From NCBI GenBank assembly GCA_001799195.1, contig MGSU01000301.1, positions 1 through 5,482 on the forward strand: 5,482 bases of DNA. Reading direction: 5' to 3'. Source of the stretch: Deltaproteobacteria bacterium RIFOXYA12_FULL_61_11. GTDB lineage: Bacteria > Bdellovibrionota_F > JAHFAK01 > YA12-FULL-61-11. Positions 65-5,482 of the stretch are shown here, in pieces. Below the pieces are notes generated by a model. The model was not told the DNA's origin and did no database searches. It saw nothing but the letters and a program-made list of their open reading frames with translations. The number at the start of each line of letters is the position of its first letter. Within the stretch, counting starts at the first letter, position 1. The translations under genes were made by a program, and so were the position numbers.

Positions 65-1276
65 TCATGGACTTGCAGAATCAGCGGTCGTGTCCGTCCT
101 ATCACTTGTACCATCAATCACCACCTCGATCCGATACTCAAGCCTCATTTTTGCTCCCCCTATCGTGTCGGTGACCATTATTTGTACTTCTCCGGTGGAA
201 TCCTCCGGGGATGGTTCCCACGGATGTTGTTGTAAAAAGCCATCCCAAGAATGATAATCCTCGATCACTTCACCTGGTATCCATCGGAACAATCCCGTGG
301 TGGGATTGAGGTCCATACCTAGTTCGGCTCTTTCAAGGTCATAGGTCAAGGTGTTTGCCTCGCTCTGGATGGTCCCGAGATCGCAGCGATATTCCTCACC
401 CAGGCGAGCGGTCGTCGGGCAATCCAAGGCGCCGGCAACGATTTTCTCGCGAATGTCCGGATCTTGGTCGAGAGGACAGCCCTTGAACATGTTCTTGAAA
501 GTGTCGATGGAACACGATGACGTCATGGAAGACTCAACCACCGGTTCACCTTGCTCGTCAAAGAAAGGCTGCGCAGGTTTATACCGATCTGGAACGCAGT
601 TGTTACTGAAGGACCAACAAAATTCCTTCTCTTGGACGTACACGGGCTCACCGACACAATTGCGACCCTCGATGCATTCGATATATTTCCTGGTGATACA
701 TTCATCATGGATGGACAATCGTTTGCCAAAGACAGGTTCGCAGTTTTTGGCGGCAAAACAATGCTCCATGTCGAGCGAGGCACAGGTTCCACGAGGTTGC
801 TCCTCGGGTTGTTTCATTGAAGAGTGATGGTCGTTCATTCGCAGTTCGTTACAGTTATGATACCCAGATCCACAAGCGTGCGGATGCAGCGAAATCGGTA
901 AATAGGGCAGGGGTATTTCCTGGATCGTTGGTAATAGTGTCTTTGGATAATGTAAAGAGGAGTCCTGGTAATAGTCAACAAGATGGAAACAGGAGCCATC
1001 AAGCGAGGTCAATTCTGTTTGAAAAATACCTTCCGCCCCTATAACGCCTGGCAATGCCTGTCTTTCTTTCACTTTTTTATTTCGCATGTAAAACAGATGT
1101 TGCGCTGGTCCCAGGTCGTAACATGTATTCAGATGATCAAACTGCATGAGTTGTCCTTCTATGCTGTAACAATCGGGCTCGCAGTCATTGGAGGTAATCA
1201 TTTCATAGAGCGAGCAATTAGAGAACACAATGACTAAAAGAACCGCGCTGTAAAGGATGTATGCAGGTGGATACAT
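65..1276 (-). CDS. Cysteine-rich exported protein (possible lipoprotein) with C-terminal putative-Ig domain
   Basis: 403 residues, ATG at 1276-1274, stop TGA at 67-65. I chose this start because AAGGAG lies 13 bases upstream and the gene then begins 4 bases after the preceding stop. Residues 7-20 form a hydrophobic stretch ending at Cys21, like a lipoprotein signal peptide, but -3 to -1 is F-S-N rather than a standard lipobox and the n-region has no Lys or Arg. There are 19 cysteines; without Cys21, 18 remain, enough for nine disulfides. Residues 165-227 carry two similar segments, C-x5-C followed by EPV[FY] (Cys173/179 and Cys201/207). Residues about 285-388 resemble a putative-Ig (He_PIG) module: CPTTARLGEEY, LTYDL, GMDLNPTTGLFRW, VTD-x-IGGAK. 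A Thr/Ser/Asp tail ends the protein. No enzymatic motif is seen. It probably sits on the cell surface or in the periplasm; its function is unknown, and a role tied to the upstream peptidase is inferred from coupling only. Confidence 0.88.
   Translation of the reverse strand: MYPPAYILYSAVLLVIVFSNCSLYEMITSNDCEPDCYSIEGQLMQFDHLNTCYDLGPAQHLFYMRNKKVKERQALPGVIGAEGIFQTELTSLDGSCFHLVDYYQDSSLHYPKTLLPTIQEIPLPYLPISLHPHACGSGYHNCNELRMNDHHSSMKQPEEQPRGTCASLDMEHCFAAKNCEPVFGKRLSIHDECITRKYIECIEGRNCVGEPVYVQEKEFCWSFSNNCVPDRYKPAQPFFDEQGEPVVESSMTSSCSIDTFKNMFKGCPLDQDPDIREKIVAGALDCPTTARLGEEYRCDLGTIQSEANTLTYDLERAELGMDLNPTTGLFRWIPGEVIEDYHSWDGFLQQHPWEPSPEDSTGEVQIMVTDTIGGAKMRLEYRIEVVIDGTSDRTDTTADSASP
113..424 (-). other. 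Putative-Ig (He_PIG-like) domain in the Cys-rich protein
   Basis: Residues about 285-388 of the 403-residue protein. Pattern: P-x-x-A-x-x-G-x-x-Y, then LTYDLERAELGMDLNPTTG-LFRW-x-P, an insertion rich in Trp and acidic residues, then VQIMVTDTIGGAKMRLEYRI-EVV. This is the classic order of the domain, which is a non-enzymatic cadherin/Ig-like surface module. Cys286 and Cys298 near its start could form a local disulfide. Confidence 0.7.
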
Positions 1277-1280
1277 ACTT

Positions 1281-4200
1281 CTAGTAGTTCTCCTTATCTG
1301 TTGAAATAACAATATCATCGATCCAGCCATAGAATTGCGAATCCCAGGTGTGATTATCACCATCGTTGCCAAAGAAGATTTTCCCTGAAGTCAGGCCGGC
1401 GGTATCATTCAATACTTCCGTGTGATAAATGATAACATCATCGCGATAGACTCTATATTGTGAAATTGTGTGCGATGTATCCTGCCCAACTATCCGTTCA
1501 ACGGTTATTTTATGCCAATCGTCAAACGTGCCTAAATACTTACTATCAATTGGCTGATACCAAACACCATTGATATACATTGGATACATAGCACCACTAT
1601 ACTGAAGGGTCATCTGAAATGATGATGTTGAAATCATGAAAAGGACACTTGTACTTCGGTAAGTTCCATCGCCTTGCTTATTGAGAATTTCATCCGATTT
1701 GTACCAAAATGAAATGGAGAAAGAACGAGCAGCATTTAATACAGCACTATCCAACTCAAGCCAACTATGGCGAAGGCTTGGAAATTTTACGGATGAGTCT
1801 GTTGTAGTTGAGTTGCTACCATGACGAGTGTTCTGGCTGTCAAAAATAGTCCTTGTGAAGATCGCATCGTCATAGGGTGATGGTTTTATATCTGATATAG
1901 GCTGCTTAGAGGAGTTGTCGAATGTATACACCGCATAGACCTTTGTCTCCGGCTCAATGCCGGTACCAAAATACGTCGAGTACGATAGCTCTCCAACACC
2001 GTTCCTTCCTCTCGAATCGAGGAATGCGGCATAATAAACCAACATAGCGTTGTCACTCGCACAACTATTGCCATCTTTTTTATCAGCGGTGACGGAATAT
2101 CCATAAATATCCATGACAAGATGCTGACCACCTACCCCGGTCGCGAATACCCGCTCTTTGTTGTCATAGTATGAATGGCTTGTTTCGAGGTATTTCGCCT
2201 TCGTGCGAGAATAGAGCGAGAGATCGATATCATCAATAGCTTTCCCTTGCTGATGACGCCGATCATACCACCAGGCCACAGCTTTTGCCTCATTGATACT
2301 GTGCGGTAATTCACGCCCACCTGACAATCCAATAGACACGGTTTTACCCTGTTTGATGCAGGTACTGCCCAGTATCATTCGTGCGGCTTGTGACACCGAA
2401 CTGGTTTGGAAAAGACGCAGCTTCAAACGACCCGCACCCCATTCATTGTCGAAACCAGAGGTCAAATACCCCTCGCTACCAGACATCCTGTCACCCATGA
2501 GAAGGAGTGCAGCATAAAGATATCCAGGACTATCGATGATATCGGGGTTCTTGGTGTCTATTTTCTTATAGGCATTGATAAAATCGAGCGCAGCTCCTGC
2601 AACGACGGGCGCGGCGAAACTCGTACCGCAATGAGAGGGAGCCGGTATCCCATTCAACACGTTATCTTTTCCGAAAAGGAGCTTGCCTCCAGAATACCCG
2701 GTAATTGCATAGCCAGTGCAACCAGGTGCCACGAGATCGATGATGGTTCTCCCATGACCTTGACTCCAGAAATCCTCTCGTTTTTCAGGATCACGCGGAA
2801 TAATACCACCACGAGCGGAACAAGCCCCTTGTTTATACATGCACATCCGTTGTCCCAGTCGAAGAGAATTGGTAATAGAACCAGTAGAAGGTAGATATGC
2901 ATCAGGGTGTTTATTCGCAAAAGGATAAATGATTTTACCAGTGCTATCAGTGTAGGTATATTCAGGTACTCCACCCTGCCCCACAGCACCGACGGTGAAG
3001 ACACCTATTGCAGAACCTGGTGTACTGGACGTGCAACTTGTTGTATTAAAACTATTGTAATTATGCGGAATACTAATTGCGAGACCTCCAGACTCGAAAA
3101 AGGAATTGAAAGCCTTCGAGTTACTATCATCACCCAAACATGAATAGGCCCAGCCTGCTGAATGATTGACAATTTTCGGACGTGGTAACGAACGATCTGT
3201 CGTTTTAAAATTTTTTAGCATTTCAATGGCCTTGACTGTGTCAGAATCCTCAGGTGCTTGTATGAAGTAGCCTTCACCTTCAGGCGCCATACCTGAGAGT
3301 GCGGCGTTGGCGAAAGGTATGCCGACACGATTACCAGCTTGCCGATCTTCATAATCCCCGAAGAGAACACTCGCAACAGCAGTAGCATGACCGTAATCAG
3401 ACTGATTTCTTACCCCAGGACGAAGTGCAAAGGATGATACCTTGGCACATTTGCGATCCCAATACGTGTCACCATACCAAGTTGTCTTCTTCCTGTTTCG
3501 GCAATCATAGGCACCCAAGATGCGTGAATACGACGATGTAGAGTCATCCTTGAATCCCGGCACGGTCACATCAAAGGGGCCGGGCTCGATCACCGCAAAC
3601 ACAGTAGTTGGAGGATGGGTTTTCAGATTGCCGGCATAGCTACCATCGTAGCCTGCTGATATGTATTGTTGAAGCTGGGTCGCTGTGCGGATATGAGCGT
3701 TCGAGACCAGATTCGTACCCGCGGGCTGTGCCACGCGATCGCCTTGCTCGATACCTACCACGCCGGGATACTGGCGCAAGGCCTCGAGCTGTTGTCGCGA
3801 CACCGTGGCGAACAGACAGGGTTGAAATTCACAGGTCCCGGTCACCTCGCCGCCAAGACCTTCAAGGTACGTTCTGAGCGGCACAAGGGTCTGCTCGACC
3901 TCGTCAGCGAGGTCGAGGTTCAGCGCTGTAATGTAATTCTCTCGATCTTCGACGGTGCAAATCTCTTTCCTGGCGATGGCTCGTTCGACCAGCGTGCTCA
4001 GCCGTTCTCTCGGCAAGTCGACCAAGGAGACGATGACCTCGAAGAGCTGGTCTTCCGGACTGGTATTGATGAGTTGCGCGAATTCCTCGCTGATGATCGG
4101 CGGCGGATCATCGGGAATGATTTCTGGATTCATGGGGTCTTTCCCGGTGCCGGCATAGGAAGCAAGCAGTTCGGACGATGGTGTATGCTCGGTCTCCAAC

Positions 4201-5482
4201 TCGACCACACCGCTCGTCACCTGTATTCCCGGGTTCGGCGAATAGTAGAACTCCGTTTGGAGCGCATAGGTCTTCCCCTCTGGTGACTCTTGCCGCTCGA
4301 CGAAGGGCAGCAGGCCGTCGACCGGCTCGAGGTCGGCCAGGGGGTGGCGGATGGGGGTGAACTCGTCCGGGTTCTCGATGAGATAATCGACGTTGTCACC
4401 TATTCCATCGCCGTCTTTGTCCGCCCACTCGAAAGGATCCTCCGGGAAAGCATCCTCATCATCCGGTACACCATCCCCATCGTCGTCGAGGTCGGCGTTA
4501 TCGCCGCTGGCATCGCCGTCGGTGTCGAGCCATTCGGCGGGGTCATTCGGGAAGGCGTCCACGGCATCGGTGTAACCATCGCCATCGCTGTCGACCGGGT
4601 CCTGCTCGATGAACCGGGTCTCGAGGATGATGTCTCTGCGAACGTACAAGGTTTTGCCGCGATGCGATCCGGCAAGCTGCAGCGTGTAGCGCCCCGAAGG
4701 TGACAGGTCGCCGGAGGCATCGGTACCATCCCAAAGGACCTGGACAACCCGACCGGCCTCGAGCGTGGGGAAGGACCAGGAATTGACCGTGCCGCCGGAG
4801 CCATCCATCAAGGCGAGCGTGGCTGCGTCGGTCTGGACCAGAGTGTTTATTAGGATACGGACCTGGTTGGTCGTCCCTTCGGTGAGCTGGTAGCGCCTAG
4901 CCTCGGTGTGCAACGTGAGCAGTTCGCTCTGCTTGACCAGGGAGGAGGGTCCATCCCAGGAACACCAGTGTTCGGAAATAATCGGGTCACCGTTCTGGTC
5001 AAAATCGTCGATTCGCAGATAGCGGCGCTGGGTATGGAACCAGGATTCGATGAACATGGCCGGCTGATCATAGCTGCTCGGCCGGAGCGCAAGGTCGCCG
5101 TGAAACCAGCGGGCGCTGCAGTGGTCCTCGGTGCGTAGGATGCCGCCGAGGCCGTAGTGATTTCCGAACTGCACGATGCAGGCGATCTCGTGCCCGCAGC
5201 CTTCATTATAATAGGCCACGGTGCCGTCGGCATGGATGGTGCCGTGCAGGGAGTAGGGCACGTCGTTGAAGTTCAGCTCGCCCAGGGTGCCAAAGCTGCT
5301 GTCGGGACCTTGATAGAGGTAAAAATCCTCGGTCAGGCCGCAGGGGTAGTTCATGACCCCGAGGGTCGGGCATGACATCAGGATGCTACTGTCCGGGCCT
5401 TGCCACCACCAGCCGGTCAGGTCGTAGGCCACCACACCGAAGCTGGAAAACCCGTCGGTCGCCACGGTGAGGGTGTCGGCGC
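1281..5482 (-). CDS. Secreted multidomain subtilisin-like (S8) serine peptidase with TSP3 repeats and C-terminal LamG domain, 5'-partial
   Basis: The frame is open from the window edge to TAG at 1283-1281, giving 1399 visible residues (residue 1 = codon 5480-5478). No stop precedes the GTG at 5465, so the true start lies outside the window. Order of parts: Cys-containing region of no known family (1-210); FlgD-like Ig module (about 217-272); TSP3 repeats (297-365); linker; I9-like propeptide (about 477-585); S8 catalytic domain (about 623-1024); beta domain (about 1038-1155); LamG-like jellyroll (about 1180-1395). The family cleaves proteins after the propeptide is removed; substrate here is unknown. 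Cysteines in most segments and the calcium repeats argue for an extracellular or cell-surface location. Odd points: the catalytic Asp position is Glu, the propeptide sits deep inside the chain, and GC content falls sharply near 3720. The first residues (VATDGFSSFGVVAYD) look like the last strand of an upstream beta-sandwich domain. Protease family is secure; activity is uncertain. Confidence 0.93.
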   Translation of the reverse strand, partial: ADTLTVATDGFSSFGVVAYDLTGWWWQGPDSSILMSCPTLGVMNYPCGLTEDFYLYQGPDSSFGTLGELNFNDVPYSLHGTIHADGTVAYYNEGCGHEIACIVQFGNHYGLGGILRTEDHCSARWFHGDLALRPSSYDQPAMFIESWFHTQRRYLRIDDFDQNGDPIISEHWCSWDGPSSLVKQSELLTLHTEARRYQLTEGTTNQVRILINTLVQTDAATLALMDGSGGTVNSWSFPTLEAGRVVQVLWDGTDASGDLSPSGRYTLQLAGSHRGKTLYVRRDIILETRFIEQDPVDSDGDGYTDAVDAFPNDPAEWLDTDGDASGDNADLDDDGDGVPDDEDAFPEDPFEWADKDGDGIGDNVDYLIENPDEFTPIRHPLADLEPVDGLLPFVERQESPEGKTYALQTEFYYSPNPGIQVTSGVVELETEHTPSSELLASYAGTGKDPMNPEIIPDDPPPIISEEFAQLINTSPEDQLFEVIVSLVDLPRERLSTLVERAIARKEICTVEDRENYITALNLDLADEVEQTLVPLRTYLEGLGGEVTGTCEFQPCLFATVSRQQLEALRQYPGVVGIEQGDRVAQPAGTNLVSNAHIRTATQLQQYISAGYDGSYAGNLKTHPPTTVFAVIEPGPFDVTVPGFKDDSTSSYSRILGAYDCRNRKKTTWYGDTYWDRKCAKVSSFALRPGVRNQSDYGHATAVASVLFGDYEDRQAGNRVGIPFANAALSGMAPEGEGYFIQAPEDSDTVKAIEMLKNFKTTDRSLPRPKIVNHSAGWAYSCLGDDSNSKAFNSFFESGGLAISIPHNYNSFNTTSCTSSTPGSAIGVFTVGAVGQGGVPEYTYTDSTGKIIYPFANKHPDAYLPSTGSITNSLRLGQRMCMYKQGACSARGGIIPRDPEKREDFWSQGHGRTIIDLVAPGCTGYAITGYSGGKLLFGKDNVLNGIPAPSHCGTSFAAPVVAGAALDFINAYKKIDTKNPDIIDSPGYLYAALLLMGDRMSGSEGYLTSGFDNEWGAGRLKLRLFQTSSVSQAARMILGSTCIKQGKTVSIGLSGGRELPHSINEAKAVAWWYDRRHQQGKAIDDIDLSLYSRTKAKYLETSHSYYDNKERVFATGVGGQHLVMDIYGYSVTADKKDGNSCASDNAMLVYYAAFLDSRGRNGVGELSYSTYFGTGIEPETKVYAVYTFDNSSKQPISDIKPSPYDDAIFTRTIFDSQNTRHGSNSTTTDSSVKFPSLRHSWLELDSAVLNAARSFSISFWYKSDEILNKQGDGTYRSTSVLFMISTSSFQMTLQYSGAMYPMYINGVWYQPIDSKYLGTFDDWHKITVERIVGQDTSHTISQYRVYRDDVIIYHTEVLNDTAGLTSGKIFFGNDGDNHTWDSQFYGWIDDIVISTDKENY
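1290..1295 (-). promoter_or_regulatory. Shine-Dalgarno site for the Cys-rich protein gene
   Basis: On the minus strand AAGGAG is followed by 13 bases and then ATG at 1276. The site lies inside the codons Asp-Lys-Glu-Asn-Tyr-stop that end the peptidase gene, so ribosomes finishing that gene stop right beside the next start. This favours translational coupling and decides the start at 1276 over the in-frame ATGs at 1372 and 1318. I saw no comparable purine-rich site just before the ATG at 1318. The 13-base spacing is rather long. Confidence 0.65.
1296..1943 (-). other. LamG / concanavalin-A-like jellyroll domain
   Basis: Residues about 1180-1395, at the end of the peptidase protein. It shows VYAVYTFDNSS, then WLELDSAVL, FSISFWYKSDE, DDWHKITVERI, YRVYRDDVIIYH, KIFFGND and FYGWIDDIVIS, in the order typical of bacterial LamG-like (Laminin_G_3) jellyrolls. 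These usually bind glycans or other surface ligands, or act as adhesion tails. Here it may hold the protease on a target surface. Ligand not predictable. Confidence 0.85.
2016..2369 (-). other. Post-catalytic beta domain, KP-43-like
   Basis: Residues about 1038-1155. AVAWWYD followed by IDDIDLSLYS and then YYDNKERVF recall the 'LVWTD ... NDLDL ... NNVE' pattern of the beta-barrel that follows the catalytic domain in KP-43-type subtilisins. Two cysteines (1041 and 1140) could pair within it. Such domains stabilise the protease and may bind calcium. The match is by motif only. Confidence 0.55.
2409..3614 (-). other. S8 (subtilisin-like) catalytic domain
   Basis: Residues about 623-1024. Active-site positions by motif: VFAVIEPGPFD puts Glu632 (codon GAG, 3587-3585) where the Asp of 'VIDxG' belongs; DYGHATAVASV gives His698 (3389-3387); AISIPHNYN gives the oxyanion Asn807 (3062-3060); CGTSFAAPVVAG gives Ser954 (2621-2619). 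IVNHSAG matches the substrate-binding strand, and FDNEWGAGRL the usual closing GxG segment. Gaps of 66, 109 and 147 residues exceed those of subtilisin BPN' (32, 91, 66), so there are insertions, notably before Ser954. Eight cysteines fall in the domain, an even number consistent with disulfides. Confidence 0.9.
3726..4052 (-). other. Inhibitor_I9-like propeptide of the S8 peptidase
   Basis: Residues about 477-585. It starts with LFEVIVSLVDLP, has a charged helical middle, and ends FATVSRQQLEALRQYPGVVG-IEQ. That last part matches the usual end of subtilisin propeptides (two strands, an 'L..L...P.V..IE' helix and strand). In the family this domain folds the protease and blocks its active site until cleaved. 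Here it has three cysteines, one more segment than usual, and is preceded by at least 470 residues. Cleavage after it would separate the catalytic half from the whole N-terminal array, unless the parts stay associated. Confidence 0.7.
4386..4592 (-). repeat. Thrombospondin type 3 calcium-binding repeats (protein-level)
   Basis: Residues 297-365 of the peptidase protein form two units of about 35 residues. Each contains an Asp-rich DxDGDG loop, then DAFP-x-DP-x-EW, then a second D-x-DGD-x-x-GDN loop. In the first unit the second loop reads DTDGDASGDNAD, with Ala where Gly is usual. In this family the Asp side chains wrap calcium ions and form a stiff spacer. Here the spacer sits between the FlgD-like Ig module and the propeptide linker, so it would hold the protease away from the N-terminal region. 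The opposite strand gives a long spurious hydrophobic frame, as expected from such repeats. Confidence 0.92.
4665..4832 (-). other. FlgD-like Ig module within the peptidase protein
   Basis: Residues about 217-272. The segment AGRVVQVLWDGTDASGDLSP followed by SGRYTLQLAG matches the consensus of FlgD-type Ig modules (strand, WDGxDxxGxxLxxGxY, strand). These modules are common near the C-terminus of exported proteins and act as structural beta-sandwiches, not as enzymes. It directly precedes the TSP3 repeats. Confidence 0.7.
5295..5402 (-). repeat. Short internal duplication carrying QGPDSS
   Basis: QGPDSS occurs at residues 27-32 (5402-5385) and 57-62 (5312-5295) of the visible peptidase protein, exactly 30 residues apart, each after an aromatic residue (W or Y) and followed within a few residues by T-L-G. 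This suggests a small repeat unit in the unrecognised N-terminal part; more copies may lie upstream, outside the window. Confidence 0.5.

What the first reader, a model, noticed from the sequence alone, without database searches (positions are those of the whole stretch)
3300..4100. Sharp GC shift inside one open frame at the propeptide/peptidase junction
Hand counts per 60-base line give about two thirds GC upstream in the gene (40/60 at 5101-5160, 41/60 at 4741-4800, 40/60 at 3721-3780) but 28/60 at 3361-3420 and 22/60 at both 2521-2580 and 1561-1620. The change falls near 3720, just where the propeptide ends and the catalytic domain begins, with no break in the frame. The downstream Cys-rich gene also looks lower in GC (30/60 at 841-900). 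This looks like a mosaic: a GC-rich trunk joined to a catalytic/LamG cassette, perhaps with its downstream partner. Modular surface proteins with exchangeable low-GC ends are known from polymorphic toxins, but that comparison is inference.
Basis: partly seen in the sequence, partly recalled or inferred. Interest (0 to 1): 0.6.

Follow-up and report, generated by a model that had tools for sequence, protein, structure and literature searches.

The report
Patchwork surface protease gene, low-GC end
One bacterial gene changes sharply in base composition where its protease domain begins, and other large genes of the same genome with a similar front end but unrelated back ends do the same, which suggests that this bacterium builds surface proteins by fitting foreign-looking ends onto home-made fronts; whether those ends act as weapons is unproven.

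Summary
The shift is real. In the 1399-codon open frame (5480-1284, minus strand) GC3 falls from 0.75 to 0.42 at 3674 (support 3758-3662; log-likelihood gain 79 against at most 9 in shuffles), and fourfold-site GC falls from 0.82 to 0.43. It is the strongest C-terminal drop in gap-free sequence among 659 ORFs from a third of the genome. The next are two other giant proteins that share trunk modules but have unrelated low-GC tails, then an Rhs gene. In both giants a small low-GC gene follows the tail, and composition returns to host level after it. So 'same kind of trunk, different low-GC tail' holds inside this genome. The propeptide belongs by homology to the peptidase (Myxococcota relatives have both, with flat GC3 and no trunk), so the step cuts through a conserved unit about 220 codons after the trunk ends; and it may be a ramp rather than sharp. 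The downstream Cys-rich lipoprotein gene matches a conserved position: 18 of 29 relatives have such a gene directly after the peptidase. Best reading: an exoprotease with a laterally replaced, low-GC 3' end plus operon partner. A toxin role is not shown.

The parts
4326..5480 (-). GC-rich trunk, incomplete at the contig end: beta-rich module, FlgD Ig-like domain (4665-4859), thrombospondin-3-like Ca-binding repeats (4326-4655). GC3 0.75-0.81.
   Evidence: Pfam FlgD_ig E 8e-7; homologous to C188 and, in the TSP3 repeats, C122 and C309; codon usage correlates 0.92 with host for 3675-5480.
4050..4325 (-). Linker, GC3 0.70
   Evidence: no family match.
3675..4049 (-). Peptidase propeptide, GC3 0.70, on the GC-rich side but homologous to the propeptides of Myxococcota relatives
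   Evidence: Alignments; beta-alpha-beta elements with pLDDT up to 78 in an otherwise poor model.
3662..3758 (.). Composition breakpoint (GC3/GC4), best at 3674
   Evidence: Change-point fit with permutation null; step and ramp of up to about 260 codons not distinguished.
2031..3674 (-). S8-type catalytic domain and its C-terminal extension, low GC (GC3 0.37-0.47). Glu at 3585-3587 in the usual Asp position, His 3387-3389, Asn 3060-3062, Ser 2619-2621
   Evidence: Pfam Peptidase_S8 E 3e-9; alignment to 32 relatives.
1284..2030 (-). C-terminal region, LamG-like, GC3 0.42; absent from nearly all relatives
   Evidence: No Pfam hit; weak match to a model of the host's own LamG domains.
68..1276 (-). 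Downstream gene, starts 4 nt after the stop codon of the peptidase gene: Cys-rich putative lipoprotein (403 aa), GC3 0.51; operon partner
   Evidence: ORF; Cys-rich lipobox gene in the same place in 18 of 29 relatives; low-GC relatives elsewhere in the host genome.

Best explanation
The gene is a mosaic. A host-type trunk (beta module, FlgD-Ig, Ca-binding TSP3 repeats) displays or anchors a secreted S8-type peptidase of a family otherwise found here only in Myxococcota, and the peptidase is co-transcribed with a Cys-rich lipoprotein. The low-GC 3' end (catalytic domain, C-terminal region, lipoprotein gene) was most likely brought in by recombination from a lower-GC source or replaced by such a copy. 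The same process has put unrelated low-GC tails with their small partner genes on at least two other trunk-bearing giants in this genome. Working model: the trunk is exported and folds with calcium, the propeptide is cleaved and the peptidase acts at or near the cell surface, and the lipoprotein binds, folds or restrains it at the membrane. Shown: compositional mosaic, trunk sharing with different tails, conserved peptidase-lipoprotein pairing. Inferred: lateral origin, surface location, co-transcription, partner role.
For: Strongest gap-free intragenic GC3 drop of 659 ORFs; ranks 2-4 are C122, C188 and an Rhs gene. Trunk modules shared, tails unrelated. Low-GC tail plus partner is bounded by host-like composition on both sides in C188 (0.72/0.69, then 0.50 and 0.54, then 0.81) and C122 (0.73, then 0.43 and 0.52, then 0.78). 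The low tails share one codon usage (correlation 0.85-0.87 with each other, 0.28-0.50 with host). No comparable GC3 step between propeptide and catalytic domain in Myxococcota relatives, so the domain itself does not dictate it. Family in 31 of 377 genomes of that phylum against 0 of 385 other genomes. Partner Cys-rich lipobox gene in 18 of 29 relatives against 17 of 530 host control genes and 12 of 192 control ORFs of the relatives.
Against: The step lies about 220 codons inside the peptidase side, not at the trunk/peptidase boundary, and in C188 likewise about 240 codons after the TSP3 end. It can be fitted as a ramp. Low-GC genes of the same codon usage are scattered through the genome. No donor was found: catalytic identity to the nearest relatives is at most 35%. 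Paralogues of the downstream gene sit away from any peptidase of this family.
Confidence: 0.5

Rival explanations
1. The gene is old and vertically inherited; the 3' part and its neighbour drifted towards AT through regional mutation bias or weaker selection on codon use, as in other low-GC secreted-protein genes of this genome.
For: Transition can be gradual; the low-GC codon usage equals that of scattered host genes, correlation 0.91; propeptide already slightly lower; in C122 homologous repeats differ in GC by position in the chain.
Against: 489 ordinary genes are flat along their length; composition recovers at the next gene in C122 and C188; the strongest drops fall on proteins with shared trunks and unrelated tails.
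Confidence: 0.3
2. A polymorphic-toxin-like system: the trunk delivers exchangeable C-terminal enzymes against other cells and the downstream gene is the immunity protein.
For: Architecture trunk / low-GC tail / small secreted gene at three loci; C122 tail weakly resembles an endolysin; an Rhs gene in the same genome has a low-GC tip; S8 domains occur in toxin proteins (PMC3482391).
Against: The Myxococcota relatives are stand-alone proteases with propeptide and conserved partner, as expected of ordinary exoproteases; no known toxin or immunity family was matched; the trunk-like fragment after the C188 tail is only 36% identical to the trunk, unlike displaced Rhs cores (PMC2935791).
Confidence: 0.12
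3. The contig is a chimera made by the assembler from two organisms or strains.
For: This MAG holds at least one probable misjoin across an N gap (C238) and has 342 contigs.
Against: No N in the window; frame open across the step; propeptide and catalytic domain align as one unit to relatives and the expected partner gene follows; same pattern at two other loci.
Confidence: 0.06

Closest known systems
Rhs genes with C-terminal displacement (PMC2935791)
   Same: GC-rich conserved core joined in frame to variable tips with a distinct GC signature, small genes after the tip
   Different: No YD repeats in the window protein; step lies inside a conserved enzyme; no dissociated tips with identical core seen
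Polymorphic toxin systems (PMC3482391)
   Same: Modular exported proteins with exchangeable C-terminal enzymes and a downstream gene; peptidase domains occur there
   Different: No toxin, immunity or secretion hallmark detected; homologues elsewhere are stand-alone propeptide-bearing proteases
Subtilase family S8 (Pfam PF00082)
   Same: Propeptide, His, oxyanion Asn and Ser motifs
   Different: Glu in the place of the catalytic Asp in this protein and most close relatives; fused trunk and C-terminal extension
Thrombospondin type 3 repeat surface proteins such as myxobacterial MtsC (NF047638)
   Same: Similar TSP3 repeats in the trunk, weak match far below cut-off
   Different: Different domain order, with peptidase and FlgD-Ig domain

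Membership tests
Polymorphic toxin system | Shared N-terminal trunk with unrelated C-terminal domains | tested here: met
   Window, C188, C122; trunk similarity is modest and partial, strongest in TSP3 and FlgD-Ig.
Polymorphic toxin system | C-terminal domain is a recognised toxin | tested here: inconclusive
   S8 peptidase only; no toxin-family match. Toxicity not testable by sequence.
Polymorphic toxin system | Downstream immunity gene | tested here: inconclusive
   A downstream gene is conserved in position but no immunity family matched.
Polymorphic toxin system | Dedicated secretion or delivery domain at the N-terminus | not testable with these tools
   The contig ends inside the trunk.
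Subtilase S8 | Profile match over cut-off | tested here: met
   PF00082, 36.9 bits against cut-off 21.8.
Subtilase S8 | Asp-His-Ser catalytic triad | tested here: not met
   Glu-His-Ser: Glu at aa 632 in the Asp column, Asp retained in six more distant relatives. Fold relation stands; canonical triad does not.
Rhs C-terminal displacement locus | RHS/YD repeat core | tested here: not met
   No RHS match in the window protein.

The most novel reading that the evidence does not exclude
A previously undescribed polymorphic exoprotein system in a sparsely sampled bacterial phylum: Ca-binding TSP3/FlgD-Ig/LamG trunks carrying exchangeable low-GC enzymatic tails (a Glu-His-Ser subtilase, an endolysin-like enzyme, others), each with its own secreted partner or inhibitor gene.
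Probability: 0.25. Interest if true: 0.65.

Novelty: new variant of a known kind. Interest (0 to 1): 0.42.

Why it matters
Exchange of low-GC C-terminal ends is known from Rhs and Maf proteins. Finding the same pattern on TSP3/FlgD-Ig trunks with a protease tail would extend it to another class of surface proteins and make tail-plus-partner exchange testable by strain comparison. Separately, the conserved pair of a Glu-triad subtilase and a Cys-rich lipoprotein in Myxococcota is a concrete enzyme-partner hypothesis that can be assayed.

Tried and rejected
Domain-dictated composition: rejected, since relatives show no comparable step between propeptide and catalytic domain. Genome-wide 5'-3' gradient: rejected. 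Gene-length artefact: rejected, most of the 35 ORFs of 1000 aa or more have no comparable drop. Several strong 'shifts' in the survey were artefacts: out-of-frame 5' extensions and an N-gap misjoin. AlphaFold on a 3-sequence alignment gave pLDDT 37, so no fold search was run. No relatives in viral contigs or plasmids. Paralogues of the downstream gene do not sit beside the peptidase family.

Full report
Observation. The window is a whole contig (C301, 5482 bases) of a 4.64 Mb metagenome-assembled genome, 87% complete, whose phylum has one other genome in the collection. The minus strand holds an open frame from the contig end to 1281 (1399 codons, start missing) and a second gene at 1276-65. 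GC3 falls from 0.75 to 0.42 with the best break at 3674; the gain is 79 log units against at most 9 in permutations. Fourfold sites, which carry no amino-acid constraint, fall from 0.82 to 0.43. By region GC3 is 0.75-0.81 in the trunk, 0.70 in linker and propeptide, 0.47 from the break to the active-site His, 0.37 in the rest of the catalytic core, 0.47 and 0.42 in the C-terminal regions, about 0.5 in the second gene. A step and a ramp of up to about 260 codons fit equally well, so 'sharp' is not shown.

Rarity. In 1.56 Mb of the same genome (median gene GC3 0.745 in the first 1.18 Mb), 659 ORFs of at least 300 aa were tested. Leaving out one ORF that runs across an N gap, the largest drops towards the C-terminus are the window gene (lnL 79), C122 (70), C188 (48) and an Rhs gene on C149 (44). 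C122 and C188 were fetched because they match the trunk, so the sample is not random with respect to them. Length is not the cause: most of 35 ORFs of 1000 aa or more show no comparable drop. Ordinary genes are flat.

Same trunk, different tails. C188 matches the window trunk in TSP3 repeats (43-45%), in FlgD-Ig (26%) and more weakly over the beta module; C122 shares LamG and TSP3 modules with C188 (23-39%) and a TSP3 piece with the window. The tails of the three proteins do not match each other. In C188 the low tail and the 198-aa gene after it (GC3 0.50 and 0.54) lie between host-like stretches (0.69-0.72 before, 0.81 after; the latter is a trunk-like fragment, 36% identical to C188's own trunk). 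In C122 the low tail and the 280-aa gene are followed by a GC-rich gene with RHS repeats. The low tails resemble each other and the other low-GC genes of the genome in codon usage, not the bulk of the genome.

The peptidase unit. The window's propeptide, catalytic core and C-terminal extension align end to end with proteins of two GC-rich MAG records (L097, L098; 31% identity). A profile finds the family in 31 of 377 genomes of L098's phylum (taken as Myxococcota from the record title 'Deltaproteobacteria' and my own knowledge) and in none of 385 other genomes outside the window's own. Relatives carry 28-334 residues before the propeptide and mostly few after the core: no trunk. In no relative does GC3 differ between propeptide and catalytic core as it does here (0.70 against 0.41, p = 6e-9); most are within 0.1 and the largest differences are about 0.14. 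So the step is special to this gene and cuts through an otherwise conserved unit. A tree places the window catalytic domain among these relatives (with L201 and L202, support 0.88), while the propeptide tree is unresolved.

Partner gene. Directly after the peptidase gene, 18 of 29 testable relatives have a Cys-rich ORF with a lipobox, many with exactly nine cysteines and start overlapping the stop, against 17 of 530 host control genes and 12 of 192 control ORFs. The window's second gene is Cys-rich with a lipobox-like start and has a weak but above-shuffle match to one of these partners (8.2 bits; 100 shuffles reach 6.1). The pairing is therefore most likely ancestral to the family and not a product of the mosaic event.

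Interpretation. The data fit a modular surface protein whose 3' end and partner gene come from a lower-GC source. The break inside the peptidase can mean that a resident GC-rich peptidase end was replaced by a homologous low-GC one, or that composition drifted regionally; this genome alone cannot decide, since no close relative is available. A toxin role is possible but unsupported: the family looks like an ordinary secreted protease with a lipoprotein partner. Propeptide and export suggest activation outside the cytoplasm (established knowledge of S8 enzymes); the surface location and the partner's role are inference.

Catalytic site. The Asp column of the S8 triad holds Glu in the window (aa 632) and in most closer relatives, and Asp in six more distant ones; His 698, Asn 807 and Ser 954 are kept. 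Activity of such a site was not tested, and one literature search did not surface a matching description.

Noticed in passing
window 3585-3587; relatives L098, L097, L189-L216: Catalytic Asp of the subtilase triad replaced by Glu in this protein and most close Myxococcota relatives, with His, Asn and Ser kept.
   Followed up: partly
L098 and relatives: Conserved gene pair: Glu-type subtilase followed at once by a Cys-rich lipoprotein, often with nine cysteines; one genome (G098) has about ten matches to the peptidase profile.
   Followed up: partly
L044 5401-7143: C122 tail ends in an endolysin/M15-like region (phrog_894 E 1.5e-4; Peptidase_M15_4 only E 0.11) followed by a 280-aa HEAT-like gene with an apparent signal peptide and a gene with RHS repeats.
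   Followed up: partly
L132 550-2700: Rhs gene whose last 160 codons drop to GC3 0.34.
   Followed up: no
L154 1-12054: N-gap scaffold joining a host-like 5' piece to a GC3 0.2 repeat protein; probable misjoin in the MAG.
   Followed up: partly
L097: Record titled Klebsiella pneumoniae MAG but GC is 0.70 and the peptidase is of Myxococcota type; probably mislabelled.
   Followed up: no
L040 7250-8214: Paralogue of the second gene on C79 split over two frames (43% and 41% identity), possibly a broken copy.
   Followed up: no
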